A DNA stretch of 64,000 nt. It comes from Saccharomycodes ludwigii. Lineage: Eukaryota; Ascomycota; Saccharomycetes; Saccharomycodales; Saccharomycodaceae. Location: assembly GCF_020623625.1 (NCBI RefSeq), contig NC_060205.1, forward strand, positions 923,501-987,500, in the 5' to 3' direction. Position numbers and translations under genes: made by a program. The notes under the pieces are model-generated. The model was given only the letters and a program-made list of their open reading frames with translations, had not been told where the DNA came from and did no database searches. Below, piece by piece: positions 11,993 through 36,593 of this stretch (position 1 is its first letter; every line of letters starts with the position of its first letter).

Positions 11993-14900
11993 ATGTCTAA
12001 TAATACTGAAAAAAGAAAGAAAGAATTGCTAAATGAAATTGGGGATAAATTAAACGTTGATTGGCTTTTAAGAGAAAAATCAAGCGATATAGGCATACAT
12101 CATCATCCTTATCATAACACCAATGATGACAAAACCAAGACTTCCGCCACTCACAGTTACCAATCTAATAATAATTCATCAGTTGATGAGAAACCCACTT
12201 CCCATATTTCTAGTAAAGACTCGAACGAGATTCCTACTACATTAGAAAATAAAGATGTGAATGAGAATTATAATAGTAATAGGTTATATAGAAATGATAC
12301 AAGGTTAGATAATTTTTCACCATTTGATTATAATTTGGCAAATATCGCTAAACATAATGATAATAACATTGATGCCGTCCCATTAAGAAGAACTAAGTCT
12401 TTATCTGTTAATTCTGCTGGCCATACTGAGAGGGTTCCCTATAATATAGCGCCGGTGCCTCCTACTACAAAAAAGAGAGGTTTTTTTAGAAGTTTATTTA
12501 GTAGACACAACAAGGAACATGAACATGAACATGAACATGAACATGAACACGAACATCAACAAGAAGAACGGAAATCCCCCGTACCATCCATGTCTAATAG
12601 AAGCAGATCTAACAGCATTAATAAAATGAACTCTTCAAAATATTCTGAAAACAAGAACATTAGTAAATCACATGATACGGCTTCAATCAAGAAATTTGAC
12701 CCACCTGTAACTGGAAGCAACAATGGTCCTAATAATGTTGGCTCGACAAGATTGTACAAAGCGAGAACCACTGGTTCTGTTTCATTGAATGACGTTGATC
12801 CCAGGTTAGAAGAATTTTTACAATATTATAAAGCTAGAAATATGAAAAAATTAAAAGAGGAGGAAAATGAAGAAACAAGCAACAATGATAATATTAATGT
12901 TAAGAAACTTAAAGCTACTTTTCAACTAAATCCAAAGGATAATACTAGTAACAAGTTTCGTAATAAAAAATCCAATGTTGTAGATGCCAAAGGAAGGCCT
13001 ATTCCACCGCATCCAGATAAACCTAAATTACCACCAGCTATTAACAGAAAATATTATATTTCCAATACTAGTAGTGATAGTAGCATAGGGGAAAATTCTT
13101 CGACAGATCATTATCATCATCATCATCACCCTCACCACCATCAGAACCATAGTCCTCATGGTTATGATCATCATGATATTAGAAACAATAACAGTGCTCG
13201 TAGTGATAGCAACATATCCACCGGTAGTGGTAATAGATTAACAAACAGATTATCCAGAACATTGTCTGGTAGAAGTAATAGTAATAACTCTAACCTCAAC
13301 AGTGGCTCAGCTAAGACAACCAGCGGTACATCCAAGTTTGGTTCATTTTTAAGGAGAGTTACTTCTCATATAGAAGAGGAAGACGAAGACGATAATGATG
13401 CCGGTAGTGGCCAGAAAAGAAAACAAAGAAAAGAGTCGCAGCACCATGCTAGTACCGCTGATTCTAATTCAGATGACGATTATGACGATTATAGCGACTA
13501 TAGTGACTACTCAATTTCTTCCTCATCTTCAGACAGTTCTTTATCTGATGAGGATAATGAAAATGATAGCACCAGCAGTAATCTCATACTTAAGGAGGGA
13601 CTACCACCTGGTTTAGAAACGGTTAAACCATTAAAGAAAGTTTCATTTGCCATAAATACCTTTTTCAACGATCCACCTCAACAAATTTGTAGCAGAAACC
13701 CCAGAAAGGGCGAAGTGGAAATAAAACCTGATGGTAGCGTTGTTATTCATAGATTGACTCCAGAGGAAAAACGCAAGATTATGGAAACCGCCACTTGCGG
13801 TATTGTTATTGGTGGTACTGGTCCTTTGAAATTGTTAGATGATGAGGACGTTGATGCTCAAAAGGTGAATCCAAAAAAATTGGAGGAAAAAGCTCCTGAA
13901 TCAATTCATGAGAAAGCAGATGTGCCATCTCCAACAACGGTTAATACAACGCCTACCACCACTGCTAATAATAATAACAAGACTCGTAAAAGTGCCGATG
14001 CTAAAGAAGAAGAGGAAGAAGAGGAAGTAGGTGTTTCCAAAACAGCTTCTGCAGTTAAGATTGATAAACCAATATTGACTAGACGTGCTGGCTCAGCTGT
14101 TTCTATGGCATCATTTTTATCTAGCGGCGGCGATGATGATGATGATAATTGCTTTGTTTATCCTCCACGCAATTTGAAGATAGCAAATGATATTTTATAT
14201 ACTAGATGTTGTCATCTACGTGAAATTCTACCCATACCGTCTATCATGAGACAGATTGTCAAAGGTAGTACTGATCCAATCCCGATGTTGCAAATGAGAA
14301 ACCCTCGACCATCGATGATAGAAATTTTATCATTTAGTGATTTTATTAGTATTGCCCCAGTTTTATGTATTTCGCTAGATGGTATTTTTTTAAGTTGTGA
14401 AATGTTCAGGATTATTTTAGCCTCATTACAGTATAAACAAAACTTTGAGAAACTTTCACTAAGAAATACTCCATTAGATGAAGAAGGTTGGAAGAATTTA
14501 TGTTATTTTATTTCGAAAAGTAGATCTTTGAAATGTATTAACTTGACCATGGTACCTGGTGCTCGTGTTAATGTACAAAAACCTTCTAGATCCTCTTTGA
14601 AATCCAACATAGTTAGGATGCAATGTAATATGAATAACAGGAGTGACCGTAATTGGAACTTGTTAACGGCAAGCATTGCTGGCAACAAATCGCACATAGA
14701 GGAAATTATTTTATCCGGTGCCAGAATGAGTTCGCTAGAGGAATTTAAAAATTTCATTGAAGTTGCTTGTATATATACTAAAAGATTAGGTCTAGCTTAT
14801 AATGATTTAACATTTGATCAATGCTCGGCCCTGGCTAAATGGTTAGGTCAGTCTAGAGTTACTGGACTAGATGTTGGTTATAACAACCTATTTGGCAAGT

Positions 14901-16813
14901 TGTCCCCTTTCATTGACGTCATTTTGACTAAGATCAAAAATAAGAAAACAAACGAATTTAAATATCTATCCTTGAACTCTACGGAATTGGCCGTTGGTGA
15001 GAAGGATACCAGTAAAGACAGCGAAGTTATTAAACTATTAAATGCGCTATGCTATTGTGACAATTTAAAGTTTTTAGATTTATCCAACAACCCAAAATTA
15101 TTTCCATACGGCACGCATTTTTTGACTGAAAGTTTACCGGTTTGTGTTAGTTTGGTAAGACTACATTTAGATTATAACGATATGGATCCAGCTTCTATAA
15201 TTGCTATTGCTGAAGTTGTTCCCATATGTCGTACGTTAAGTTATTTGTCTTTGATTGGAAATAAATTAACTCCGATTTGTTGTTCTGCGCTAGCCAATGC
15301 AGCACGAAAGAGCAATTCCTTGATGAATTTGGATTTGGATTATGATGATGTGCCAAGTTCTGTAAGACAAAAGATGTCAGTTTATACTCTAAGAAACACG
15401 GAATTGCAAGTTAAGAAAATGAAGGTTAAAAATGCTTCTGGTTCAACTTACGAATATGCGACAGACACTGTTTCCAAACTACAAGAAGAATTAAACCATT
15501 TGTTAGCGAAAGGTGATCTCTCCGACGATGAAGCTTATAATAAAACAGCCAGTGAAGTTATCAGCAAAATAACCAACATTAGGAATGGGCTACAAAATGT
15601 TATTGAGAATTTGTTTAAATTAAGAATGACTAATGAATTAAATACTGAGGGCAAAGAGACATTGATTAGGCTATGCTTTATTGATTCATCCTTGGAAAAA
15701 GGTGCAGAATTGTTGTCAGACAAGCTAAAGAATACTTTCACTGACACTAAGGCTTCCGCTGGTAATAATGCCAGTATTCCTGATACTTCTAAGTCAATCT
15801 TCTTGCACACTATGGAGGAAGTTAAAAAGGGCCACGAACATTCTTTACCGGTGTTAACTGAAAATGATAGCAGTGTTTCAATGCGGAAACAAGGTACTGA
15901 CTCTAGTACAGGTTTGAGAGCCTCATCCAAATTTAACTCACATCTCAATTTGTTTCCTTTTCAAAATTCATCCGGAACCAATTCTCCAACTTTGCAAACA
16001 TTTGAACCAGACGAAGCAGTACATTTTGACGGGGATGCCAACAACAGTTCTCAAATTGCCTTAGATCAACTAAGGGAAGAGGGTAGCATTTTGAAGAAAA
16101 CTACTGCGTTGATGAAAACTATGAAGGGGACTTCATGGTCAGATGAAATTAGTCAAAGCTTGAACAGCGCTTCCGATAGCATATCTTCTACTGACATCAA
16201 ACAATTTATCTTGACACATGATGTGGGAAAGGTGATCGATTTGTTGAATCAATTGAAAAAAGAAGGTGTAGACTACAAAGAGTTGTTTAAAAAGAACGGA
16301 AATTCAAGTAATAATGAGGGGACCGAATTAACTAGTCAAAATGGTACCAACAAGGGAAGTCCAAATGACAGTACAACCAGTAATCCATCCAGTGTTGCGA
16401 ATAAAGTAAGTTTGCCTACCAATACTAGCACCGATGCCAGTATTCATGTCAATACCGATACCAGTACCAATGTTAATACCGATGCTACTACTGATGTTAG
16501 TGCCGATACTAATGCCAATTCTAATACCAATTCTAATGCTAATGCTAATACTAATTCTAATATTAATTCTAATGACAATCTTACTACTGGAGATAGTAAC
16601 ACACATCTTAAAACTAATTCTGTTGCTGGATTGGATGCAATTTTGAAAGAAGACAGATCTAAATATCACGACTCAAATAGTGATGAGGACAGCGTTATTA
16701 CTACTGACGATGAAGAACGGGATGCAAAAGACACACAAGACAACACTGATTTTGATAAAGCTTATGATCAAGTGCTAGACAAAATTGAAAGGGTCAGGAC
16801 CAATAATAACTGA
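11993..16813 (+). CDS. MHP1: Microtubule-associated protein Mhp1 orthologue
   Basis: In S. cerevisiae Mhp1 (YJL042W, about 1398 residues) is an essential protein reported to bind and stabilise microtubules. Here it has 1606 residues. Diagnostic blocks seen are an N-terminal DWLLR, a basic KKRGFFRSLFSRH motif, a conserved KKVSFAINTFFNDPPQQI block at about 548-565 (the KVSF part fits a PP1-docking RVxF motif), KGEVEIKPDGSVVIHRLTPE, and YTRCCHLREILPIP. A leucine-rich-repeat-like domain follows at about 760-1130, with FLDLSNNP and LRLHLDYNDM units. The end (VLDKIERV) also recalls yeast Mhp1. Expanded low-complexity tracts explain the extra length: a HE run (EHEHEHEH), two His-rich runs and a C-terminal Asn/Thr/Asp-rich region. 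Position and orientation before NSP1 and NUP192 support the name. Confidence 0.9.
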   Translation: MSNNTEKRKKELLNEIGDKLNVDWLLREKSSDIGIHHHPYHNTNDDKTKTSATHSYQSNNNSSVDEKPTSHISSKDSNEIPTTLENKDVNENYNSNRLYRNDTRLDNFSPFDYNLANIAKHNDNNIDAVPLRRTKSLSVNSAGHTERVPYNIAPVPPTTKKRGFFRSLFSRHNKEHEHEHEHEHEHEHQQEERKSPVPSMSNRSRSNSINKMNSSKYSENKNISKSHDTASIKKFDPPVTGSNNGPNNVGSTRLYKARTTGSVSLNDVDPRLEEFLQYYKARNMKKLKEEENEETSNNDNINVKKLKATFQLNPKDNTSNKFRNKKSNVVDAKGRPIPPHPDKPKLPPAINRKYYISNTSSDSSIGENSSTDHYHHHHHPHHHQNHSPHGYDHHDIRNNNSARSDSNISTGSGNRLTNRLSRTLSGRSNSNNSNLNSGSAKTTSGTSKFGSFLRRVTSHIEEEDEDDNDAGSGQKRKQRKESQHHASTADSNSDDDYDDYSDYSDYSISSSSSDSSLSDEDNENDSTSSNLILKEGLPPGLETVKPLKKVSFAINTFFNDPPQQICSRNPRKGEVEIKPDGSVVIHRLTPEEKRKIMETATCGIVIGGTGPLKLLDDEDVDAQKVNPKKLEEKAPESIHEKADVPSPTTVNTTPTTTANNNNKTRKSADAKEEEEEEEVGVSKTASAVKIDKPILTRRAGSAVSMASFLSSGGDDDDDNCFVYPPRNLKIANDILYTRCCHLREILPIPSIMRQIVKGSTDPIPMLQMRNPRPSMIEILSFSDFISIAPVLCISLDGIFLSCEMFRIILASLQYKQNFEKLSLRNTPLDEEGWKNLCYFISKSRSLKCINLTMVPGARVNVQKPSRSSLKSNIVRMQCNMNNRSDRNWNLLTASIAGNKSHIEEIILSGARMSSLEEFKNFIEVACIYTKRLGLAYNDLTFDQCSALAKWLGQSRVTGLDVGYNNLFGKLSPFIDVILTKIKNKKTNEFKYLSLNSTELAVGEKDTSKDSEVIKLLNALCYCDNLKFLDLSNNPKLFPYGTHFLTESLPVCVSLVRLHLDYNDMDPASIIAIAEVVPICRTLSYLSLIGNKLTPICCSALANAARKSNSLMNLDLDYDDVPSSVRQKMSVYTLRNTELQVKKMKVKNASGSTYEYATDTVSKLQEELNHLLAKGDLSDDEAYNKTASEVISKITNIRNGLQNVIENLFKLRMTNELNTEGKETLIRLCFIDSSLEKGAELLSDKLKNTFTDTKASAGNNASIPDTSKSIFLHTMEEVKKGHEHSLPVLTENDSSVSMRKQGTDSSTGLRASSKFNSHLNLFPFQNSSGTNSPTLQTFEPDEAVHFDGDANNSSQIALDQLREEGSILKKTTALMKTMKGTSWSDEISQSLNSASDSISSTDIKQFILTHDVGKVIDLLNQLKKEGVDYKELFKKNGNSSNNEGTELTSQNGTNKGSPNDSTTSNPSSVANKVSLPTNTSTDASIHVNTDTSTNVNTDATTDVSADTNANSNTNSNANANTNSNINSNDNLTTGDSNTHLKTNSVAGLDAILKEDRSKYHDSNSDEDSVITTDDEERDAKDTQDNTDFDKAYDQVLDKIERVRTNNN

Positions 16814-17172: not shown

Positions 17173-17611
17173 ATTTTAATTTTTGTAATATAATCTTTTA
17201 CAATTGCCAAGAAGAAAAATTGTACATGATAGACATTTAAAATTTTTTTCTTTCAATACCAATTTTATTCATCTTTGTAAACCAACTTGTGCACATGTTT
17301 CATACATTTTTTCTTTTGTTTTTATTTTGCAATACTGGAGTCAGTTGAATAACTCTGTGAATCAATATAAAATATAAAACAATCATTTTGACAGTGATAT
17401 TATGTAATATTGAATAATAAGAATAAGAAAAAATATGAGACAGAAAAAAATATCGCAATCATTGAGCACTGATGATAAAAGTAGATCTTTTATTATCATC
17501 ACGACAAAGGGTTTGTGCAACATGGAGATTGTATATAGTTTATATTTTTCTTGCATTTTTTTTTTAATATAAACTTGGTACTTTTAAGGCGTCTTTGTAG
17601 ATGCTCAAAAA

Positions 17612-17641
17612 GGAAATTTCTACTAGGCCCATAATTATGAC
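17612..17641. promoter_or_regulatory. Candidate Mcm1/alpha2-like operator upstream of the a-factor gene
   Basis: Read on the minus strand this is CATAATTA, then CCTAGTAGAAATTTCC. It looks like a degenerate form of the S. cerevisiae a-specific gene operator, in which a CATGTAATTA half-site flanks a CCTAATTAGG-type Mcm1 core. It lies about 410 bp upstream of the pheromone ATG. The match is partial and spacing differs, so it is only a candidate. Confidence 0.2.
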
Positions 17642-18049
17642 TTATTTTCCATATAAACAAAAACAAAACCTTTGTTAAAAATTAACCACAAAACAAAATA
17701 TGTGTATTTTTAATTACTAAATTTGTTGCATAAAATAGAAGCAAGATCTAAATTTGAAGCTTTTTATTATGAAATCAGACTCCTCAACACTTTTATTTTA
17801 CTAAAGATTATTTTAATTAAATTTTAATTATTATCAAGTTTCATGGCAGAGGAAAGTTTAAATTTAAAAGACTACAAAAAAAAAAAAAAAATAGAATATA
17901 AATAAGGCTCTGTAATGATATATTAATCTTAACATTCGTTTTTCTTTTTATTAATCACTCCTCTCATACTTACTAATATAGGTACCAAAACAAATAATAT
18001 AACACTGAAAAAACAAACCAATATAAAATAAACAAATAACTTTTAAAAA

Positions 18050-18166
18050 ATGCAACCAACCTCTGTTTCTGTTTCCATTTCCAATAAAGACAAAAAATCA
18101 GCCGAAAAAAAGGATAACTTTGGAGTGAAGGGCGTCTGGGTTGACCCACAATGTGTCATTGCTTAA
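18050..18166 (+). CDS. MFA: a-factor mating pheromone precursor
   Basis: A 38-codon gene starting MQPT and ending in the CaaX box CVIA. Its layout matches S. cerevisiae Mfa1/Mfa2, which also begin MQP, carry EKKDN before the mature peptide, and end CVIA. By homology, cleavage after the Asn of EKKDN would release FGVKGVWVDPQC, to be farnesylated and carboxymethylated at the Cys and exported by a Ste6-type transporter. S. cerevisiae a-factor is YIIKGVFWDPAC, so the KGV and DP-C positions are kept and the rest differs. The gene lies between MHP1 and NSP1, which are adjacent in S. cerevisiae. The leader before the ATG is A-rich, typical of yeast. The identity is strongly supported by the combination of MQP, EKKDN, the peptide and CaaX. 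Confidence 0.95.
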   Translation: MQPTSVSVSISNKDKKSAEKKDNFGVKGVWVDPQCVIA

Positions 18167-18752: not shown

Positions 18753-20999
18753 ATGAGTGGGTCTCCTTTTACTTTTAATCTTAACCAACCAAACAATAAT
18801 AATAATAATAATAACGATAATAACAAAGGTACTTTTTCATTTGGCCAGACGGGAACATCTAGTGGTAACTCAACTGCGCCTTCATTTTCATTTGGATTAA
18901 ACGACAAAAATAATAGTGGTACTAATAGTACATTACCTGCCTTTGGTCAATCTGCTACAACTGCCTCCAAACCACTATTTGGCCAATCTGGTTCCACACA
19001 GACTTTTTCCTTTGGTGGTGCTAATAGTATAAATCCAACGGCAAATTCTTCCAATGGTAATGATGTGAAAACCCCCTTTACATTTGGTGGCCTAAATAGT
19101 GCTACATCCAATGGTGCTTCTGAAAAACCTACTTTCGGTTTCGGATCAAATACCGGTGATAAACCAGGACTTTCTTTTGGAATTAATAACTCTAATACCA
19201 TTTCGACAACAAACACCGAAAATAAGCTACCAATCTTTGGTGCAGGCACTACTGTTACAAGTAAAACCGCTCCTTCTTCAAATGCTTCAGCTGGCTCTGT
19301 ATTAAACAATAATACACAATCTACCGAGACTGCCAAACCAACGGCTTTTAATGGAGCCGATGCTAATACCGGTGAAACGAAGAATGCCTTTTTTTCATCA
19401 GACAACAATTTGAGTCTTACAAATAATTCTGGGGCAACGGAAAGTGCCACTTCTAAACCTCAGTTTTCATTCGGTACTGAATCCACTGAAAAAAAGGATG
19501 GTAAACCTGCGGTTTCATTTGGTACTAATCCGAACACCGTTACGGAAACCAAAGCACCGGTGTTTTCCTTGGGTAATGCTACAACTACTTCCTTAACAAA
19601 TAAACCGGCGTTTTCATTTGGCGCTACTACTAATGCTATCGCGACCAAGACTGGAGAACAAAAGGATGATACAAAACCAGCTTTTTCATTTGGTGCTACT
19701 ACGACCGAAGAAAAAAAGGACAAACCAACATTTTCATTTGGTGGTGCTACTAATGCTACCAAAACCGATGGCAAGAAAGATAGCTCAACAACAAAACCAG
19801 CTTTTTCGTTTGGTGGAGCTACTAATACTGCAAATTCTGAGGACAAGAAGGATGGCTCAACAACAACAGCAGCTTTTTCATTTGGCGGTGCCACTGCTAC
19901 TGCCAAAACCGATGACAAGAAGGATGCTCCAACAACAACACCAGCTTTTTCATTTGGTGCTGCCAAAACTGAAGAAAAAAAGGACAAGCCATTGTTTTCA
20001 TTTGGTGGTGCTACTAATACTACAAATTCCGAGGACAAGAAAGATGGAGCAGCAACGAAACCAACTTTTTCATTTGGCGGTGCCACTACTACTGCCAAAA
20101 CCGATGACAAGAAAGATAGCTCAACAACAAAACCAGCTTTTTCGTTTGGTGGAGCCACTAATACTGCCAAAACCGATGACAAGAAAGATAGCTCAACAAC
20201 AAAACCAGCTTTTTCATTTGGCGGTGCCACTAATAGCAGCAACATATCTAATGATAACAATAAGAAAGAAAATGCTCCTATTGCTAATATGAATTCTAAT
20301 TCTGCAAATAATATGACCGACAATAAGAATGGTCCTAAAGAGGTCAATTTACCTTCTACCAAAACAAAAACAGTTGATGTTCCACCAATTACGTTAGACA
20401 ATAAAACACTAGATGATTTAGTTTCTAGATGGTCTTCTCAACTATCCACTTCGTCTGCTCATTTTGAGGAGTACACCAAAAGAGTTAATGAATGGGACCA
20501 GGTTTTAGTTCAAGGCGCCGATCAAATAAGTAAATTATATTCTAACACTTTATTGGCAGAACAAACTCAAAATAAGGTTGAACAATCATTACAATATATT
20601 GAAAGACAACAAGCAGATTTAGCAATAACTTTAGATAATTTTGAGAACAGAACTTCATCCCTATTATCTGATTTATCATTGCCTACTACCACCACCACTA
20701 CCACCACCACCACCGATTCTAATACAACGGGCACTGATGATGAAAGGAGAAAACAAGCTTACCAGACTGCTCTGCAATTAGATGAAAACCTAGATACTTT
20801 ATCAACTAATCTTTCCTCACTAATTGAACAAATCAATGAAGTAAGCGACAAATTTAATAAAGTTTCCAATATTAATTCTTCTAACCAGGAAGAATCAACA
20901 GAAATTATTAAATTGTTAAATTCGCACCTTAAGGCTTTAAGAGCCCTAGATACAAATTCTAATGTTTTAGAATCCAAATTAAAAGCATTTAATAAATAA
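18753..20999 (+). CDS. NSP1: FG-nucleoporin Nsp1
   Basis: Nsp1 is an essential FG-repeat protein of the nuclear pore central channel and of the Nup82 complex. The 748 residues compare with about 823 in S. cerevisiae. The N-terminal ~530 residues are FG repeats: first GLFG-less FGQ/FG units, then highly regular FSFG units separated by charged TDDKKD-type linkers, exactly the Nsp1 pattern. The C-terminal ~190 residues form the coiled-coil domain that binds Nup49-Nup57 and Nup82, beginning near LDDLVSRWSSQL. A Thr run (TTTTTTTTTT) interrupts the coiled coil at about 645-655. Its place between MHP1 and NUP192 agrees with S. cerevisiae chromosome X. Confidence 0.97.
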   Translation: MSGSPFTFNLNQPNNNNNNNNDNNKGTFSFGQTGTSSGNSTAPSFSFGLNDKNNSGTNSTLPAFGQSATTASKPLFGQSGSTQTFSFGGANSINPTANSSNGNDVKTPFTFGGLNSATSNGASEKPTFGFGSNTGDKPGLSFGINNSNTISTTNTENKLPIFGAGTTVTSKTAPSSNASAGSVLNNNTQSTETAKPTAFNGADANTGETKNAFFSSDNNLSLTNNSGATESATSKPQFSFGTESTEKKDGKPAVSFGTNPNTVTETKAPVFSLGNATTTSLTNKPAFSFGATTNAIATKTGEQKDDTKPAFSFGATTTEEKKDKPTFSFGGATNATKTDGKKDSSTTKPAFSFGGATNTANSEDKKDGSTTTAAFSFGGATATAKTDDKKDAPTTTPAFSFGAAKTEEKKDKPLFSFGGATNTTNSEDKKDGAATKPTFSFGGATTTAKTDDKKDSSTTKPAFSFGGATNTAKTDDKKDSSTTKPAFSFGGATNSSNISNDNNKKENAPIANMNSNSANNMTDNKNGPKEVNLPSTKTKTVDVPPITLDNKTLDDLVSRWSSQLSTSSAHFEEYTKRVNEWDQVLVQGADQISKLYSNTLLAEQTQNKVEQSLQYIERQQADLAITLDNFENRTSSLLSDLSLPTTTTTTTTTTDSNTTGTDDERRKQAYQTALQLDENLDTLSTNLSSLIEQINEVSDKFNKVSNINSSNQEESTEIIKLLNSHLKALRALDTNSNVLESKLKAFNK
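19610..20225 (+). repeat. Tandem FSFG-linker repeats inside NSP1
   Basis: About eight in-frame units of roughly 57-78 bp encode FSFG(G)AT plus a charged linker. The last units, around 20090-20225, are almost identical in nucleotides (shared AAAACCGATGACAAGAAAGA), which points to recent unit duplication or gene conversion. Confidence 0.85.
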
Positions 21000-21241: not shown

Positions 21242-24200
21242 CTATGAATCCTCACCAACATAACCAGTCAATGTACACAATAGAACAATCAACTCAAGTA
21301 ATTCTTGTAGGCCCTGTGCAGTATTTTTTTCAGTCAAAACATAATCTCCACTTTCAATCAAAGCATCTTTCTTCACCACACCTTGAACTAATTTACGGAA
21401 TCTGTATAACAATTTTCTTACACTTTTCAAACAATATTTATTTTCACTACCCATACTCAAAACGATGGCAGTCAATAATTGAAATACCGGAACAAATAAT
21501 TCAAATAGGGAAATAGTATTACTTTCTTCTGGCCCTTTAACAGTTAAAGGTTTATCAAGGTTTAATTTAATTTCAACATACGGAACACCATTGTTAAACA
21601 GTTCATTAAAAACCAATTCTAAACCCAAATCAGGATCCAACTGTAAGAATTCACAGGATGATATAATTTTAAAGACTTCATTTTGAATCAATTCTTGAGC
21701 ACCAGCCTTGGTTTCCGCGATACGAATCAAAAAGTTCATTGTTGTTTTGAAAGCGGTTAATTCATACAATAATCTATCGACAGAAATATTTTCATTTGTT
21801 GCATATAATAATTCATCCGTTGCCTTTAATGATCGGATAATCAATAAGAGCATATTACTCCTCGACAAGTTTTCTAAAACAAAATTAACTTTACCCAAAC
21901 TAGCCAATTGTACTAATGAGTTTAAAAATAAAATACTAGTAATTCTGTGAGAACCTTCACCGCAAAGAGCATCTGAACCCACTACTTGAACCAAATTTTC
22001 ACTTGACATTTTCATTTCATACAAAATTTCTTTGGCCAGTGACAACCCTTGTTTATTTTGTTTCAACAGATTGGAAATAAATTTAGTACACATAACATAA
22101 AAATCAGATCTTAGAGACAACGTGGATAATGGGGATACGATGCCATAGATGCATGTCTGAAATAATGAATATAATTTTCTATCAATACTTGTCGACGCGT
22201 CATTAAGCAATTTACGATCTTTATCATACAAGTCGTATAAGAAAACACATAAAGATACTAACTCTTCTGTATATTCAATGTTACTGTCAACAAAATCAGC
22301 AACTTTTGGAATTATGGCTTCGAAAATTTCCATTATAAAATTAGATCTGAAAATTGGGGACAAAGGATTCTCAGTAACCATAACTTGAACTAGTTGAACC
22401 CAAGAATGTAACACAGATAAATGAACCGTGTTAAATTCTTCTACCACACGCACTGTACTAATATAATTTTTAATCAAATTGCATTCAACTTGCTTCTGAG
22501 TTAAGTCAACAGCGGTACCTTTAGTTTTGGCCAACCAATCACTTCTTAAATCCAACAAAGCATCCAATGAGCTGAAATCAAAAATACTATTAGAACTTGA
22601 GTCCAAAACCTCCAGATGAGTTAACATTTTTAAGATACAGCTCATATCAATACCGGTTTTATATAAAGATAGTTTTTTCAAAGATTCTTCAGAATTGGTA
22701 ATAATGCTTGTGGTATTAAAAATATTGCTCAAATACCTAATTGTATCCAGATAAGAAAATATTTTAGGAGATCTCAAAACCAGACTTGTAGTTAAACCAG
22801 TAACATATTTTTCACCTTTGTCTGTACCGTTTAACCTATGTATCTCTAAAGAAAAATATGATAATAAATAGCACCTGAAGGTTAGAAACGATAATAAAGT
22901 TTCAAAAGACATTGCTGATTGTGTTAGACTTTCTAAAGTATGGCCATTCCATTTTGTATAAATATCAATGCTAATACCCAGTTCTAACAACTTTTCAAAA
23001 AAAGTTTCATCATCTAAAGCTTTTAAAGTCATTTGACCAGTTAAGTTATTACTGCATAATTTCGAAATAATAGAAAAAGCTTCTGAAGCTAATTTTATTG
23101 GATAGTAGTCTATAGAATTTTTGTTAATAAAGGCCAAAGAATCTAGTATAATTGTTATCAAAGTCTTTAAAACAGAGGAATCAGAAGCAATATAAGTACT
23201 TAGTTCCGGAGAACCAATAGAAAGTATGGGAGTAATTTGAAAACCCAAAATGAAATGGGATACGGTTGGTGTACTACTGGAACTTAAATTATTTTTGATG
23301 AAGTTTATGATTTGTAGCTTTAAGGCAAAATCATTCTTATCTACAATTGACCCATTTAACTGATCAATAAAACATTGTTTTATACGAGAACTTTCGTCAA
23401 TTGAATCTAATGTGCTTAATACGATACTCTTGTTTGAATTGAAAACTGTTATCCTATTTAAAAGGGATATTGAAGTGGAGGCTATTGAAAAATTATCAAC
23501 GCCGACATACAATGCAATTTGAGCAATTAGTGGTAAATTGAACAAAATAGCGTCAAAGAAATTACGCAAACCATGCAACCCGATCGATCTTGGAACGTAG
23601 TATATGCTGGAGGATCTGCTTTGGCGTTTAATTAAGGGATAAATTTCGTCAATAAATGTATCTTGTAAAGTGAATATCTTGTCTAAAATTTGTAAACTCT
23701 TATCGCATAATATAGCTATTTTTTGCCCCTTGCGTTGAGAGTTCAATGTTTCTAACAAGGTGTCATATCCGCATGAAATGCTTTGGAAAATGATTTTGTA
23801 AACTGGTTCGTCAAACAAAAAATTTAGGATGAATCCCATAGGAGATTCCATTATATAATCAATAAAGTTTTGTTGTGGAACTAAAGAATCCAAATTGGTA
23901 CCAATCGAAAATACGGAATTTAGAATTACTGTATAATCAAAAGACGACAAACAACTCAGAATTATGTCATACACCAGATCTTGCAGAGCATGTTTTTCTC
24001 TTTGATTGATTATTTTAACTGAATTGGCGAGTACGTCATTGATGATATACTCTAAGTATGGGGCTATATTAACTTGGATTCTATTTTCCGTACCAAAGGC
24101 GATGGGAACAAGTAATTTTCCAAAGGGAACAAAACCTTGCGAATTCAATTCAGATGGCGCTATTAACTTGCTAAACAACTTTAAAAACCCCAAAATGTCT

Positions 24201-25215
24201 TTAAAGTTTGTTAAGGAACTTATAAAAAAATTTTTCTGAGTAACAGAAACACGAGTTGCACAAACAGCATTGACCGTTGTAACATTTGTGGTTAAATTAG
24301 TAGCCATGGTGACATTTGTGTTACTAGTGGTGGGTAAATTGTTATAATTGGAGTGGAAAATCCATTTGTCCAAAGAATTCCAAAGAGATGACTTTTGATT
24401 TTCATCTTCTGGAACCAATGACGTCAAAGTTTCCAATGCAGCTCCAACTAACGGAGTATTTAACTTTAAAAACTCGAATAAAACGTTAGGAAATAAGTTA
24501 AAAAGCTGGTTTTTATGTTCTGGGGGCAACTCAGCAGAGATTGAACTTATTAAGGTGAATAACGATGATAAATAAATAACTACTTCCTCACTCAACTCAT
24601 CGTTTTCATTGATAGTCTCTTCATTAATGATACCATTAACATAGCTGGAGCCAATGCTATTCAAATTGTTGTTATTATTGTTATTGTTATTTAGTGTTTC
24701 ATATTTTAATTTTTGTTGTTGCTGTTGCTTGATTTCCCAATTGGATATTTTCAAAATATACTCGCTGATGCAAGTCGCGATAGAATCCCACGTAAAATTA
24801 TTGTTGTTTATATTGACAAAATGGAAAACATTAGTGGAATTTTCTTCACCGTCACTTAAGGCAGAAATCATTAAGTTATAACAAGATTTCATTAAAATAT
24901 CATTACATTTAGAAGCCCATTCAATAAAACCATACGAACTCGACTCTTTATCTGACCAGAAAACGCTAGCTAAATCAGGTCTATTTTTATAAAAGTAATA
25001 AACAGTAACGAAAAATCTTTCCAAATCTGCTTTTTCAGTAATATCATCCAATAATAGTACACGATCGCTACTACTTAATAATGAATCTTCTTCAGCATCT
25101 TTAATTTTAGTCAATAGAAATGCACAATTGGCAATAAATTCTTGTAAGAAACCATGAAACGTGGGTAAAAATAATTGATTTAATTCGTTAGATAACGAAC
25201 ACTCAGTAATATCGG

Positions 25216-25264
<49 letters not shown>

Positions 25265-26533
25265 GTTAATATAATTATTATTATTATTAATATTATTATT
25301 AATATTGTTAACAGTATTTGTATTATTAATATTGTTGTTGTTAATAATGTTTGTATTACCGATATTATTAGTATTAGTATACGTATCAGCATTAGGTTCA
25401 GTTAATTGTATGGGAAATAATTTAGGAAAGTGTTTTTCTAATAGGGATCTAATGTCATAAAACAACTCTAAATCGGAATCAGATATTTTGGTAGTTTCAG
25501 CTGCATATGACATCAAAATTTCAATGGCTCCCAAATTTACTAAATCGCACATGGGCTTATCTACACTATTTTGAAAATCAAAAATTTTAGCCCTTTCATC
25601 TGGTGATTCTTTACACCAACTTATAAAATATGTTAAAAAGGCAAAAATAAATACAACTTTTAAGGGCTTTGTGTACAATTTTTCATCAGATCTTAAAGAC
25701 TCCATTAATGAGGTATACAGTGTTTTAATTGAAGAATCTGACATTGAATCCAAATTAGATACTATTTTTAACAAAGAGGGTAAGTAAAATAAACCAAAAT
25801 AATCATTTGATTCCAATTCGGAAGTAATATGAGTCAATAAGTTTTCAACATTGGTAATACCATTTGTACCTGTAAACAAACCTTGGGATATCAATCCAAA
25901 TAAAATTTGACCTAATAAATCATACTCTGTGGTCAAGAAGTCTCTTCTAAATTGTACATTACGTTGTTGAAAAATATTATATTGATCCAAAATTTGATAC
26001 TTGTTGACTAATTCTTGAATGTCTTTCAATTCTTTGTGTATAGATTGAAAAGAAGGTATAATGTTATTCACAAATTTTTGCAAATTAGATTCGTTGCCAA
26101 ATAAACTAATCAAATCATCCTTATCCTTGGCAGTATTTAATAAATACGAGACAATTTGTAGAATATATTGTTTCCGTAAATAGTAATTAATTTTTGATTG
26201 CTTTAATAATTTCAAAGTGTTATTCGAACTTTCTTTAATGTCAGAATTTAATAACATTAATTGAGCCATAACCAATTCATCAATGTTTAATTCATCGGAC
26301 AAAGTAATAACAGCAACTACGAATTCTTCGTTAACTTCATAAATGGCGTCATCTTCAGCTATGGTAACCTTTTTAGTAGATTCTAGGCTTTGTCTACTAG
26401 AGGTTGATTTGGGGAAATTATTTAGACTTAAATTAATAAGATCAGGCAATAGTTTTTGAAATAAAGGGTAATTAGGATCATTATTTTGAATTGATAGATA
26501 TAATTCTTCAAATTTATCAAGTCCCCAATACAT
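21242..26533 (-). CDS. NUP192: Inner-ring nucleoporin Nup192
   Basis: Nup192 is a large alpha-helical scaffold of the nuclear pore inner ring. The 1763 residues compare with 1683 in S. cerevisiae. The N-terminus (MYWGLDKFEELYLSI), the helical-repeat composition throughout and the C-terminal ELIVLLCTLTGYVGE fit the family. Two low-complexity inserts explain the extra length: an Asn run with Ile/Thr-Asn repeats at about residues 382-445, and a Gln/Asn run at about 605-630. The gene is convergent with NSP1, with only 242 bp between their stop codons, as in S. cerevisiae (YJL041W-YJL039C). I used the first ATG of the frame. Confidence 0.95.
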
Positions 26534-26910: not shown

Positions 26911-27582
26911 AAATGTTATGATTTATCGTAAGCGTAACTCAGGATTAGTCGTAATAATTACGGGTTCGGATTATGGTAATTAATTTCTTGTTTTATTTCG
27001 GTCTTTACATATAATAATATATATAATAAAGATTTATTTAAAACTATAACTTAAATACTTTTGATGAATAACTTGATAATAAATCATCTCTTTATATATG
27101 ATTTATTTTCACATTTATATTTGACGTTCATATTAATCTTTTCCAACATTTCGTTGTTGTTCCTTAGGCGGCATCTTGGTTACGGTGTTTTCCTGTAGAA
27201 GTGATTTCCATTACGGAGACTTCCTATTAAGGTAATTTCCATTGCGGAGACTTCCTATTAAGGTAATTTCCATTGCGGAGACTTCCTATTAAGGTAATTT
27301 CCATTGCGGAGACTTCCTATTAAGGTAATTTCCATTACGGAGATTTCCTGTATGTTGGTTGTAATATATGTTTACTTGGTTTCATATTACGACATGATTT
27401 CTTGCCTGTATGTAAAACAAAATAAGTTGTATGCAATAAAGATAATCTAAACTACTTTTTTTTTTTTTTTTAAATTATTTTTTAAATTCTTTTAAAAGGA
27501 AAAAAAAAAAAAAAAAAATAAAAATTATAAAAATAATACTCACAAGTTCCAAGAAATCATACAAAAACAAATACTACTCACT
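26911..27582. other. Intergenic: tRNA 5' flank, minisatellite, DPM2-like promoter
   Basis: No gene is seen. Just upstream of the tRNA is a GC-richer patch containing TTCGGATTATGG, then AT-rich sequence, the 31-bp minisatellite at 27206-27350, and T and A runs before the small plus-strand gene at 27583. Confidence 0.6.
27206..27350. repeat. 31-bp minisatellite, about 4.6 copies
   Basis: The unit starts TTCCATTGCGGAGACTTCCT and ends ATTAAGGTAAT. Copies begin at 27206, 27237, 27268, 27299 and 27330, exactly 31 bp apart. The three inner copies read TTGCGG, while the first and last read TTACGG; the last is truncated and has one more change. Interior uniformity with diverged edges is typical of unequal exchange. 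The sequence is markedly less AT-rich than its surroundings. Confidence 0.95.
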
Positions 27583-31528: not shown

Positions 31529-32143
31529 TTGCACTGTAGACATTATTATTTGGTCAATATGAGCGTCGTATTTTTTCTTTCCCCCCCCAATTAAATTATT
31601 AATTTTACTGTATATAAAAACAATCAAATGATCGTACATTCAACTTTTCCATCCTATAAATAGAAGCTATTTTATATACACAACTTTCTTTAATATATTA
31701 TTTGCCACATTTATACATAATTTTTTTTTCCATACTTCAATGTATGTATAGATATATTTCTAACTGTCTATAATTGTGAAAAGGGACCAGTGCATATCTT
31801 TTATATATTCAATATATATCAACTTTGTTACTTTGATAAGAGCGCATTTCCAAATGTGCTGCATTACATCACGGCACAAGAATAAGTACAAAAAAAACTC
31901 AGAGCAAAAACCATTTTTTTTTTTTTTTTTGTATGTGCTCTATTTTAAAAACAAAGTAAATTGTATATAATTAGAGATACATTGGTTTTTATTTAATTCA
32001 ATTTATAATTGACTTTATTTAATAAAAAAAAAAAATTTAAATTTATATTGGTAGTAAATTATTCAGGAGGAAAAAAAAAACTTGCATTATATACGTATAC
32101 ATATACAATATGTCGATGCCACTCTTCTTTTCTTTTAGCTATT
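31529..32143. other. Convergent 3' region between RSM22 and RPS27
   Basis: Only 3' flanks are expected here. It shows a C run (31583-31590), a T run near 31915-31931 and AT-rich sequence. I see no gene. Confidence 0.6.
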
Positions 32144-33329
32144 TTACTTTCTTCTGAAAGAAGTACCTTCAGTCAATCTAGCTTTACCACCAGTTGGTTG
32201 ACATAAAACCTTGGAACAGGATTCACAGGTAACAGCAGTTTGAGCGTGAGAGAAAACAGTAGTAATGTTCAAACAACCTGGGCATTTAACGTCCAAGAAG
32301 TAGGATCTTGGAGCTTGGACCAAAGTCTTTAACTTGTGTTTCTTAGCTTCAGAAGCAGCGGTTGGGTGCAATAAATCTTGAACTAAAACCTGTAAAAACG
32401 CATAAATAAGTTGCTCATAATATATATTAATAATATTTGAACGCAATTTTTAAATATCAAAGTTAGTAAAAATGAAATTAGGTTGTTATTCAATACTAGC
32501 TAGAAAACATAGAGAGAGAAAAAAAAACAATACATTTTATCAGGAAAAGCTTTTATCCGGACCATCCAACTTAGGCAAAACATATGGAACAACACAATCT
32601 CGTAACTATTTGGGAAGTATCTACACAAATCGCAGACCTCAATATTACGGAGTTCACACACTTCTAAATTTCTTCATAGCATAGAAATAAAAGAAAAACA
32701 GTTTGACTCCACAAATTTCAAGTGCTTCAAACGTCCCTCTAATACAAGCTATTCATAAAATAGAAAAATTATTGCCTCGACTTTGTCATTTTTTTATCAT
32801 CGATAACTAGTCTATGTATGTCCTTCTGCAGATAAAATATTAATTTTAGAGGTTGAGCCGCAAAACTGATACAAACACTTTCAATAGCAAAGCTAATGTA
32901 AGACATTTGCTAACTAATCTTTATCAAAGCACATTTAACATGCCTATCAATAGATGTATGCAATTGCGCAACATTCAGTAAGACAGAACTCATCCAATAA
33001 TAATATATAAAAGGAACATAACAATATCTACATCGTTTATTTGAAAAAGTGCTTCCACTAGGTGGCAAAATAAAGCGTGCAAAAGTTCCTGACAATGGTA
33101 TATCATAATCAAACATTCTTTTCAGTCCCATCTCCCAATTAATTTACAGATCACTTCCCACAATACTTAAGTAACTGCATGCTAACTTATCATCTTGTTT
33201 TCTTTTTTTTTTTTTTTTCCTTTTCCCTAATGAAACAAATATTTGGTTCTTGTTTATCTCTCTAATGTTTCCTCGACCAGTGTCTTATATATTTAGTTTT
33301 TAATCCTATTAATCTTTGTAACATACCAT
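32144..33329 (-). CDS. RPS27: 40S ribosomal protein eS27, spliced
   Basis: Exon 2 (32389-32144) encodes [10 protein letters not shown] through GTSFRRK, the near-invariant eS27 sequence with its zinc finger C-x2-C ... C-x2-C. An in-frame upstream ATG would add residues that the family lacks. Instead, a 3' splice site (CAG, ending at 32390), a TACTAAC branch point (32468-32462) and an ATG directly joined to GTATGT at 33329-33321 define a 3-nt first exon (33329-33327) and a 937-nt intron. The spliced product is 82 residues, exactly the S. cerevisiae length. RPS27A there also has an exon 1 consisting of ATG only. The protein is a small-subunit component at the solvent side. Splice sites are read from sequence; the join is inferred from these matches. 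Confidence 0.93.
32390..33326 (-). other. RPS27 intron
   Basis: A 937-nt intron: 5' site GTATGT at 33326-33321, branch point TACTAAC at 32468-32462, and 3' site CAG ending at 32390, 72 nt beyond the branch-point motif. Short open frames inside it (for example 32472-32684 on the plus strand) show no conservation that I recognise. I saw no clear snoRNA boxes. Confidence 0.88.
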
Positions 33330-36300
33330 CTTGGACTATGTGCTCTTTGTTTTATGTGTACTTTTATATTTTTTGAAGCAAAATGTTAATAAAAGAATAT
33401 AGAAATATAGAAAAAGGTTATAAGAAAATAAAAAATTAAAAAAGGTTATAAAAAAATAGAAAGGCAGGGGGATAGTATAATGATGTTTTAATGAATCTTA
33501 ACAATAATAACTAAAAACGAATGGCAAAAGACAGAGGATTTGGATGTATGATAGAGAAAAAAATTAAAAAAAAAAAAAAAAAAAAAAGAAAAAAATATTT
33601 TTTTAAGATAAAAAGAATTGGTGCAAGATATGTTTTCATAAATGTTTTCAATCAAATATCTTTTCTAACTTTGTTTAGAGACAAAATTTATTTGTAGGTA
33701 ATTTTTTTCTTTCTAAAAGAAAAAAAAAAGGAAATAATAAAAATTAAACGCCATACATCGCTTTTTTTTTTCTTTTAGTAATTTGTGATTTCTTTTTTTT
33801 TTTCTTTTATTAGCAAGTATGTGTTTTATGAGTCTATTTTGAATAAGATAACATGAAAATTAAAAAAAAAATAAATATTTTTGGAAATTAAATAGAATGC
33901 ACGGGTGTATATAATTGTCGCAAGCAGTCATATTTATTTATCTGTAAAGCCCTAAAATAGCATTTTTGGGCTTTATTAGAAGGGATGATTGAGATCTTTG
34001 TCAAAGCCAAAAAATATAATACATAACGGTTGAATATTTATTTTGTATTTTTTGAGTTTTATTTTTTTTTTTTTTTATTTTTTTTATTTTTTTTAATATA
34101 AACGTGCACGAATACTATTGTTTTGAAGTAAATGTATTGTGTGTTTTTGCCGGCGGATGTTAATAAAAGCTATGTATTATTATTATTAAAGGGATTTGAT
34201 CCCCCCTTTCACTTAAACGACTTTAACCCCAAATGCCCTTTCTCTCAAACAACAAAAATGAATATTTTTATGTAATAATATATAAATATGCATATGTTTT
34301 ATAGAATATTTTTTTTAAATTATTTCTTTTGGGGGGTTTTTTTTCTCAGTACTAAGCTTGGTAAGTAACTTTGGCTAGCTAAATTTTCTTTTTATTCTTT
34401 TTTTTTTTTTTTTAACAAAAGATGTAAAGATATGATTTGATTTTTTTAACTACTAAAGCAGCCTTAAATAAATACAATGCAATTTTGATAAAAAAAAAAA
34501 ACAAAAAAAAACAGCAGCAACAAAAAGGATACTACACATATACGTACGCTATTCGAAACCTTGTATTATTGATAGACCTTTTAATTTTATTACTATCAGT
34601 TGCTTAGCAATGCTCAATAACAAATTAATATTTAACTGTGTTTCATATATAAAATTTGTAACGCTCACATGTTTTCGTATAAAGTTGGGATACTCCATTT
34701 GTCCCTTCCGGTTTTTCTAGGTCTTAACAAATAAATAACTAAAAATTTTATGTTTAATTTAAGAGCTTTTATTTTATTTTTTTTTTTTTTTTCCCTCGTT
34801 CTTTATTTCTTTCTTTTATTACAAATATATATTAAAAAAAAAAAAAAAAAAAAGAATATAGTCTTGGCAACGTATAAGTACTTATTTATGGGTAAAAACT
34901 GTAGATACTGATCGTAATAATAGTAAATTAAAATGCTATGCAATAACCATTATTTCTGGAAATAGAATAAGAAAAATATTAACACTGTTTATATACAGTT
35001 TTAGCAAACAATCAAGAAACGTCCCACCGATTTAAAAAAAATCTCTGTTCAGAACCTATTTCCTCTGAATAAAAATATTGTTTAAATATAACGCTCAACA
35101 TAGGGTGTTGACCACTTTTTTTGGTATATTTCGTTTTATTATTATTACCAGTCCAAAGTCAGTCTTTAAACTTTTAGATACTTTCATTACTATTTGTCTA
35201 ATAGCATTTTTCACAGACCAAGTTCATATTTTAACTTTAAAGTAGAGATTTTGACCGCTAAACTTTTTTCTTTATTGCTTTATTAGCCATTACGTTTTGA
35301 ATTCACAAAAGATAATACTGCTGGACCAACAAAAACTTACTAATCCAAAAATAATCATAATTCTTTAACATATAGAAAAATGGAATATATTGCATTAGAA
35401 TAAGATGCTATTTTTAGAACTCCTTAACGATCTATGGGTTCCACTTTAATAAACTTATAATTTTATTTTTTTTTTTTATTTTTTCCATGAATATAAAGTA
35501 TATGTTGGTCACAAATGAAGAATGCTGTTTTTAAGTAACATTTAAACTCAAACTTTGGGACAATGGTATTATAACAAATAAAAATGCTATTTGATACATA
35601 TTTGTGACCTTTAACGATAATTATTCTTAGAATAAGTCATTTACTGTTATTTTGAAGATTAAACTGTTTAATATCTATAGTTTTTCCTCAAAAGGAAAAA
35701 AAAAAAAAAAAAAAAAAAAAAAAAGCAAATGGTTTTATTACAATTTTTTTTTCACCAATAAGTATGGTATTGAACTATATTTTTTTTCAATTATCTTTTA
35801 AAGAAAATTAAATGAAAGTAGAATAATTGCCTGAATACATCCAGGTAGCATCTAAAAAGACATTCAGAACACTGATAAATAATATTTCTTACAAAAGAAA
35901 AAGGTGGGAAAAAAAAAAAACAGTCAACAATTATTACAGTCACAAATGAAAAATTACTGTTTTGAGCATGAATAGAAGTACTATTTTTAATAGAATTATA
36001 TTTTTTTAGCTTTTTATAAATAGTAGACTTTACTTGTGAAGCAATTAGAGGGCAATATTTTTTTTTATAAATGTTTCGATATATTTATAGGTTACAAAAA
36101 AAAACTAATCAGAAGGGCAGTAAAGGAGAAGAAAGGATCGCATAAATAATTATAACTAATTAGCTAGCATTAAAAAATGGTAAGAGTCAAACTAATGTCT
36201 CCTTCCCATTTTTTACTAATTGACTTTTAGCACGATCCTGTAAGCAAATATGTATATACAGACATTTATAAGCAATGAAGAATTAATTTTAGAATCTTTG

Positions 36301-36593
36301 TGATGTTTAAACATATAATTCACTCTAATGTTCAATCAGAAGTGTAAATTATTAGGAAAAGAAAAAAAGGCAGAAGCCAATCTATGAAAGGATGACAAAA
36401 TAAAAAGAATAAATTTACATTAAACTTATCTATATTTCTTTTACACTCTATCTATATATATATATATATGCATGCGTATTAATGACAATAAATAGCAACA
36501 AAAAATCAAATCAATAATAATGATATAACAATAAAAAAAAAAAGAATAAAATAAAATACAATGCAAGGTAATATGATTACCATAATTCAGTTA
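33330..36593. other. 3.26-kb gene-free region between RPS27 and the Ras-like gene
   Basis: No protein gene is supported in six frames. The left end should be the RPS27 promoter; a Rap1-like ACACCCGTGCAT (minus strand) sits near 33899-33911. Structured elements are a hairpin at 33945-33975, GGGAT-TTG-ATCCC near 34192-34204, and a 10-bp inverted repeat (35507-35516 with 35600-35609) whose arm sequence recurs at 35938-35949. Many A/T runs occur, for example about 35697-35724. The segment could hold a non-coding RNA gene or a diverged element; nothing identifies one. Confidence 0.6.
33945..33975. other. Strong 31-nt hairpin in the gene-free region
   Basis: Arms TAAAGCCC and GGGCTTTA pair perfectly over 8 bp. 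After one T-T mismatch a further 5 A-T pairs close a 3-nt AGC loop. It is GC-richer than its surroundings and could be part of an RNA gene or a transcript end. Confidence 0.8.

What the first reader, a model, noticed from the sequence alone, without database searches (positions are those of the whole stretch)
18050..18166. An a-factor pheromone gene with a divergent mature peptide between MHP1 and NSP1
The 38-codon gene keeps the MQP start, EKKDN processing site and CVIA CaaX box of Saccharomyces a-factors, but the predicted mature peptide FGVKGVWVDPQC differs at five or more of 12 positions from YIIKGVFWDPAC. Its locus, inside the otherwise conserved MHP1-NSP1-NUP192 block, is not that of S. 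cerevisiae MFA1 or MFA2. So short a gene is easily missed by annotation. A changed pheromone implies a co-evolved Ste3-type receptor.
Basis: partly seen in the sequence, partly recalled or inferred. Interest (0 to 1): 0.8.

Follow-up and report, generated by a model that had tools for sequence, protein, structure and literature searches.

The report
Two-copy a-factor pheromone of Saccharomycodes
The short gene is very probably a genuine mating-pheromone (a-factor) gene of the yeast Saccharomycodes ludwigii, one of two copies encoding the same divergent 12-residue pheromone; it is a new example of a well-known kind of gene, not a new kind of system.

Summary
The window encodes a 38-residue a-factor precursor at 18050-18166 (+), above the Pfam MFA1_2 cut-off. 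Its predicted mature peptide FGVKGVWVDPQC differs from S. cerevisiae MFA1 at 6 of 12 positions. The genome is Saccharomycodes ludwigii: its Ste3 is 100% identical to SCDLUD_003957, and one contig has the same length as that species' public contig.

The main addition is a second MFA gene about 70 kb away, between CCT8 and a DEAD-box helicase gene. It encodes exactly the same mature peptide. From EKKDN to CVIA the copies differ by 7 synonymous and 0 amino-acid-changing substitutions; the leaders differ by 4 replacements and a two-codon gap. This points to selection on the lipopeptide. One STE3 and homologues of the processing and export enzymes are present.

The second copy, not the window's, has a good alpha2-Mcm1-like operator. 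MFA genes are already known to be short, divergent, duplicated and mobile (PMC3161974, passages). Verdict: real, a new member of a known kind, modest interest.

The parts
18050..18166 (+). MFA copy A: complete 38-codon a-factor precursor gene with stop, no intron needed
   Evidence: ORF; PF17317, 39.7 bits, cut-off 25; 37.2 bits in the genome search, over cut-off
18050..18118 (+). N-terminal leader MQPTSVSVSISNKDKKSAEKKDN, predicted to be removed (Ste24-type then Axl1-type cleavage after DN)
   Evidence: EKKDN invariant in the 4-sequence alignment; cleavage inferred from S. cerevisiae biology, recalled
18119..18154 (+). Predicted mature dodecapeptide FGVKGVWVDPQC, C-terminal Cys to be farnesylated and carboxymethylated
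   Evidence: identical in copy B with 5 synonymous and 0 replacement differences over these 12 codons
18152..18163 (+). CaaX box CVIA
17594..17624 (.). Weak alpha2-Mcm1-operator-like site upstream of copy A (doubtful)
   Evidence: best site of the 1,236-bp MHP1-MFA interval, 28, 11 or 9 of 179,903 scanned positions reach its score, depending on the matrix; consensus scan found nothing above shuffles for this promoter
17897..17904 (+). TATA-like sequence TATAAATA about 150 nt before the ATG
   Evidence: by eye; not tested statistically
11993..16813 (+). Flanking gene MHP1 (1606 aa)
   Evidence: (relatives named Mhp1)
18753..20999 (+). Flanking gene NSP1 (748 aa)
   Evidence: (Nsp1_C)
21242..26533 (-). 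Flanking gene NUP192 (1763 aa)
   Evidence: (Nup192)

Best explanation
The ORF is one of two paralogous a-factor (MFA) genes of Saccharomycodes ludwigii. In a cells its 38-residue precursor would be farnesylated on the CVIA cysteine, lose VIA, be carboxymethylated, lose its leader in two cuts (Ste24-like, then Axl1-like after EKKDN), leave the cell through a Ste6-like exporter as the lipopeptide FGVKGVWVDPQC(farnesyl)-OMe, and be sensed by the single Ste3 receptor of alpha cells. Shown here: the gene, the second copy with the same mature peptide, conservation of that peptide at the amino-acid level only, one STE3, and homologues of the enzymes. Inferred from S. cerevisiae: processing, export, reception and a-cell expression.
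For: Pfam MFA1_2 above cut-off for both copies. The second copy at G000:C6:871385-871492 (-), 89% identical over the protein, has the identical mature peptide. Codons 19-38 differ by 7 synonymous and 0 replacement changes; 36 of 180 possible single changes there are synonymous, so 7 of 7 has a chance of about 1.3e-5 under uniform random change, and 0 of 20,000 simulations kept the protein (no mutation bias modelled). Leader codons 1-18 carry 4 replacements and a two-codon gap, the pattern expected if only the processed peptide and its sites matter. Single STE3 (266.5 bits, 511 aa) and single STE2. Ste24-like protease, Axl1-like protease with relatives named Axl1p, farnesyltransferase beta subunit, ICMT, Rce1-like, probable Ste6. 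An alpha2-Mcm1-like operator lies 283 bp before copy B.
Against: No expression or peptide data. The sequenced strain is probably the MATalpha reference (a MATalpha1 gene is found; the published 12.5-Mb assembly is MATalpha, PMC8567612 passages), where a-factor genes are expected to be off. The window's copy has no clear operator. STE2 and both AXL1 promoters, also a-specific in S. cerevisiae (recalled), gave no good operator either. STE6 is assigned from one candidate: P-glycoprotein chains outscore the a-factor exporter 7qkr among solved structures, and the 6 other frames with two ABC_membrane domains were not compared. No a-factor of a sister species could be compared.
Confidence: 0.94

Rival explanations
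1. Copy A, the window's gene, is a redundant or decaying duplicate and copy B alone supplies a-factor.
For: Only copy B has a good operator-like site (score 15.75, 1 of 150,824 background positions as high; copy A 3.09, 23 of 150,824). Copy B also fits the Pfam model slightly better (41.4 against 37.2 bits).
Against: Copy A keeps the start, processing site, mature peptide and CaaX box intact with 7 synonymous and 0 replacement differences over codons 19-38. If copy A were free to drift, part of this divergence should have changed amino acids. A weak operator-like site remains at 17594-17624.
Confidence: 0.15
2. A chance open reading frame that resembles an a-factor.
For: Very short; six of the twelve mature residues differ from S. 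cerevisiae MFA1.
Against: Two Pfam hits above cut-off in the genome, 0 of 14 control genomes; identical mature peptide in an independent locus with synonymous differences; no MQP-plus-CaaX frame in 20 shuffles.
Confidence: 0.005
3. A CaaX-ended short protein related to a-factor but with a function other than pheromone signalling.
For: No expression or activity data; the species mates mostly within the tetrad (PMC8567612, passages), which could relax the need for a diffusible pheromone.
Against: Strict amino-acid conservation of exactly the mature peptide, processing site and CaaX box between the copies, together with a single full-length STE3.
Confidence: 0.03

Closest known systems
Saccharomyces cerevisiae MFA1 and MFA2 (a-factor; Pfam PF17317 MFA1_2)
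   Different: 6 of 12 mature residues differ from MFA1 and 7 of 12 from MFA2; different chromosomal loci (S. cerevisiae positions recalled); here both copies encode one identical mature peptide, while MFA1 and MFA2 differ at one residue (recalled)
Unannotated MFA genes of 11 yeast species found by SearchDOGS (PMC3161974, passages seen)
   Same: Short (32-38 residues), high divergence, repeated duplication and relocation; ten sites among 11 species; N. castellii has five genes
   Different: Those passages do not name the MHP1-NSP1 interval (0 occurrences of either name in the main text), but their Figure 4 and supplements could not be seen, so a shared site is not excluded. Among the species named in the passages there is no Saccharomycodes
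Yarrowia lipolytica a-factor-like pheromone and its Ste6 (PMC7243462, passages seen)
   Same: Farnesylated pheromone whose peptide sequence varies across yeasts
   Different: Said there to lack any sequence similarity to S. cerevisiae a-factor, a far greater divergence than here

Membership tests
a-factor (MFA) pheromone genes | Match to the family profile PF17317 above its curated cut-off | tested here: met
   39.7 bits and 37.2 bits against 25; copy B 43.5 bits and 41.4 bits
a-factor (MFA) pheromone genes | C-terminal CaaX box | tested here: met
   CVIA in both copies
a-factor (MFA) pheromone genes | Charged processing site (EKKDN) before a short mature peptide ending in the CaaX cysteine | tested here: met
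   invariant columns E19 K20 K21 D22 N23 and C35
a-factor (MFA) pheromone genes | Mature peptide under amino-acid constraint | tested here: met
   5 synonymous, 0 replacement differences over 12 codons; 7 and 0 over codons 19-38; only two sequences available
a-factor (MFA) pheromone genes | Ste3-type receptor in the same genome | tested here: met
   one PF02076 match, 266.5 bits, 511-aa ORF
a-factor (MFA) pheromone genes | Enzymes for farnesylation, trimming, methylation and export in the same genome | tested here: met
   the exporter is a probable Ste6 only
a-factor (MFA) pheromone genes | a-specific regulation (alpha2-Mcm1 operator in S. cerevisiae) | tested here: inconclusive
   copy B site 15.75 and probable STE6 site 26.09, copy A only 3.09; STE2 and AXL1 promoters without a good site; the matrix rests on recalled S. 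cerevisiae sites
a-factor (MFA) pheromone genes | Expression in MATa cells and secretion of the lipopeptide | not testable with these tools
   needs RNA and mass spectrometry
a-factor (MFA) pheromone genes | Activation of Ste3 on alpha cells | not testable with these tools
   needs a mating or growth-arrest assay

The most novel reading that the evidence does not exclude
The two MFA genes have divided their regulation: copy B is a conventional a-specific gene under alpha2-Mcm1-type repression, while the window's copy has lost or never had that operator and is expressed in other cells or at another time, for example in germinating spores joined in pairs inside the ascus, where this species mates, so that one pheromone is made under two programmes.
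Probability: 0.08. Interest if true: 0.55.

Novelty: new member of a known kind. Interest (0 to 1): 0.27.

Why it matters
The gene pair gives a concrete pheromone sequence for Saccharomycodes ludwigii, a yeast studied because it mates mostly inside the tetrad with almost no crossing over (PMC8567612, passages). In the main texts held of the two S. ludwigii genome papers opened, the words pheromone, a-factor and MFA do not occur (supplements not seen). The matched set found here (a-factor, Ste3, alpha-factor repeats WQWL[TS]FQWGEPMY, Ste2) makes it possible to test whether pheromone signalling is still needed when partners are born side by side, and adds a lineage outside the Saccharomycetales for studying pheromone-receptor and operator evolution.

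Tried and rejected
Third MFA copy: the profile search listed a third place, G000:C2:815852-815914 (-), at 15.7 bits, below the cut-off of 25 and inside a long frame (668-aa ORF); rejected as chance.

Operator at the window's copy: a plain consensus scan gave 15 of 25, reached by 47 of 60 shuffles. The matrix scan gave 17594-17624 as best, with about 0.19, 0.07 or 0.06 such sites expected in the interval from the counts, depending on the matrix (those counts include the site itself). I treat it as doubtful. As a warning on the method, the second-best site with the S. cerevisiae matrix (L041:5291, 17.26, above copy B) lies inside an ORF, so it is probably chance. The scan also found a strong Mcm1-like box far upstream of STE24 (0 of 60 shuffles), not followed.

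Shared flanks of the two MFA loci: blastn found one match at the gene itself (157-bp alignment) plus five short matches with E-values of 5e-7 to 2e-5, all in the flanking genes or intergenic sequence and not collinear with it; no sign of a larger segmental duplication.

First naming of copy B's neighbours: my notes (and script labels) used the name CCT7 for the chaperonin gene; one search shows it is CCT8 (theta subunit), and the gene beyond it is VPS53.

Literature: 9 searches. No paper on an S. ludwigii a-factor was seen, but the listings were capped: 1 paper, 1 listed; 20 of 103; 20 of 743; 0; 20 of 494, none of the 20 naming S. ludwigii; 7 of 7, judged from the listing; 25 of 145; 0 papers for six peptide strings, including strings of the known S. 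cerevisiae precursor, so this search is insensitive; 12 of 16. Supplements could not be opened.

Not done: no homologue search with the a-factor itself, and no comparison with Hanseniaspora a-factors.

Full report
What is there. The window holds an ATG-to-stop frame of 38 codons at 18050-18166 (+), MQPTSVSVSISNKDKKSAEKKDNFGVKGVWVDPQCVIA. It scores 39.7 bits against Pfam MFA1_2 (PF17317), cut-off 25. It lies between MHP1 (11993-16813; relatives named Mhp1) and NSP1 (18753-20999; Nsp1_C), with NUP192 beyond. Chance is an unlikely source: of 312 ATG-started frames of 20-60 aa in the window, 2 end in a CaaX-like box and 1 of those starts MQP; 20 dinucleotide shuffles averaged 0.8 and 0.

Whose genome. 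The Ste3 of this genome is 100% identical over 511 aa to SCDLUD_003957 of Saccharomycodes ludwigii, its Axl1-like protein is 100% identical to SCDLUD_002483, and the contig length given for that record, 1,848,403, equals that of contig C3 here. The assembly has 12,500,424 bases in 8 contigs. The published haploid reference is a 12.5-Mb MATalpha assembly of 7 chromosomal scaffolds (PMC8567612, passages), and a MATalpha1 gene is found here (35.2 bits, cut-off 28.1), so this is probably that strain. NCBI places the species in the order Saccharomycodales, outside the group of S. cerevisiae.

A second copy. A whole-genome search found a second MFA gene at G000:C6:871385-871492 (-), about 70 kb from the first: MQPNTISVSIKDKKSSEKKDNFGVKGVWVDPQCVIA. 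The family profile finds exactly these two above its cut-off; a third place at 15.7 bits is below it. Copy B lies between CCT8 (best match the theta subunit of the yeast chaperonin) and a DEAD-box helicase gene with an SPB4-type extension, by my recall DBP4, with VPS53 beyond CCT8. Outside the gene, the two loci share no collinear similarity in a blastn comparison.

Selection on the peptide. The mature dodecapeptide is identical in the two copies although 5 of its 12 codons differ; from EKKDN to the CaaX box, 7 of 20 codons differ and all 7 changes are synonymous. With 36 of 180 possible single changes synonymous there, 7 of 7 by chance is about 1.3e-5, and 0 of 20,000 random draws preserved the protein (uniform change, no mutational bias modelled, so the figure is rough). 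The leaders differ by 4 replacements and a two-codon gap, besides 4 synonymous changes. The duplication is therefore not recent, and the part that has been kept is exactly the part that an a-factor needs.

How it most likely works. By analogy with S. cerevisiae (recalled): farnesylation of the CVIA cysteine, removal of VIA, methylation, two leader cuts, export, and sensing by Ste3 on alpha cells. The genome has the parts: a farnesyltransferase beta subunit (best solved match 3.3e-63, against 5.8e-24 or weaker for geranylgeranyltransferase-I chains apart from a mixed-function entry at 1e-51, on 335 aa of the frame), Ste24, an Rce1-like protein, ICMT, Axl1, a probable Ste6 of 1337 aa, one STE3 and one STE2. 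The Ste6 assignment is the weakest: P-glycoprotein chains score higher than the yeast a-factor exporter 7qkr (2.7e-138 against 3.2e-107), and 6 other two-domain ABC frames were not compared. The alpha-factor gene is found as a 152-aa precursor with three repeats WQWL[TS]FQWGEPMY; its three repeat hits are below the Pfam cut-off (17.8, 16.3, 16.3 against 19).

Regulation. Using a matrix of five recalled S. cerevisiae operator sites, I scanned 12 promoters. The probable STE6 promoter has a near-perfect site, ATTGTAATTTCCAAAAAAGGAAATTTACATG, 214 bp before the ATG (26.09; 0 of 150,824 background positions as high), and copy B has TTTGTAATGTCCCTATCGGGAAATTTATATT at 283 bp (15.75; 1 of 150,824). The window's copy reaches only 3.09 (23 of 150,824), at 17594-17624. 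STE2 and both AXL1 copies have no good site. Over 179,903 positions in 28 sources, copy B's site ranks third with the S. cerevisiae matrix, behind STE6 and a site inside an ORF. The alpha2 protein was not verified: the 181-aa partial frame next to MATalpha1 matched no Pfam family at 0.001. So a-specific control by alpha2-Mcm1 is plausible for STE6 and copy B and open for the window's copy.

Known or new. MFA genes are described as 32-38 residues, highly divergent, prone to duplication and relocation, and often unannotated; ten sites are known among 11 species (PMC3161974, passages). Everything found here fits that description. The S. ludwigii pheromone was not seen in print, within the limits of the searches listed under Tried and rejected and of the two genome papers, whose held main texts contain none of pheromone, a-factor or MFA. 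Whether the gene is annotated in the public record could not be checked, because the protein search takes no query under 40 residues.

Verdict. A real a-factor gene, one of a pair, with a diverged but conserved-in-pair mature peptide: a new member of a known kind. What is most worth following is the species: one that mates mainly inside the tetrad (PMC8567612, passages) yet keeps two a-factor genes under amino-acid constraint.

Noticed in passing
L012 and L013 (G000:C5:710850 and G000:C7:435817): STE24 has a second, 98.9% identical copy (1,315-bp alignment) on another contig. Relative to the first it lacks a stretch of 158 bp that includes the first copy's start codon, so it may be a non-functional duplicate.
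   Followed up: partly
L040 and L041 (G000:C3:521000-527500 and G000:C1:1873500-1880000): AXL1, the protease expected to cut a-factor, is present twice in a duplication 99.3% identical over at least 5.5 kb (the match runs to the end of the fetched stretch); the proteins differ by 10 substitutions and one has 27 extra C-terminal residues.
   Followed up: partly
L036:5026-5056: Near-perfect S. cerevisiae-type alpha2-Mcm1 operator before the probable STE6, in a lineage outside the Saccharomycetales; relevant to when that repression arose.
   Followed up: partly
L008:1156-1614: Alpha-factor precursor with three repeats WQWL[TS]FQWGEPMY, also divergent from the S. cerevisiae alpha-factor as I recall it; its repeats fall below the Pfam cut-off, so it is easily missed.
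   Followed up: partly
window 27204-27349: Tandem array of a 31-bp unit, 4.7 copies, 97% matches, between a tRNA-Arg gene and an SRP-receptor-beta-like gene; each unit also resembles the operator matrix built from the two S. ludwigii sites.
   Followed up: no
window 31529-36593: About 5 kb without any ORF of 150 aa, unusual beside the gene density elsewhere in the window, and no Rfam match there; nature unknown.
   Followed up: no
L038 and L039 (G000:C3:742000 and G000:C7:759000): Two diverged M16-type paralogues (73.8% identical over 2,069 aligned bp); one has HTLEH at the HxxEH motif, the other has no HxxEH.
   Followed up: no
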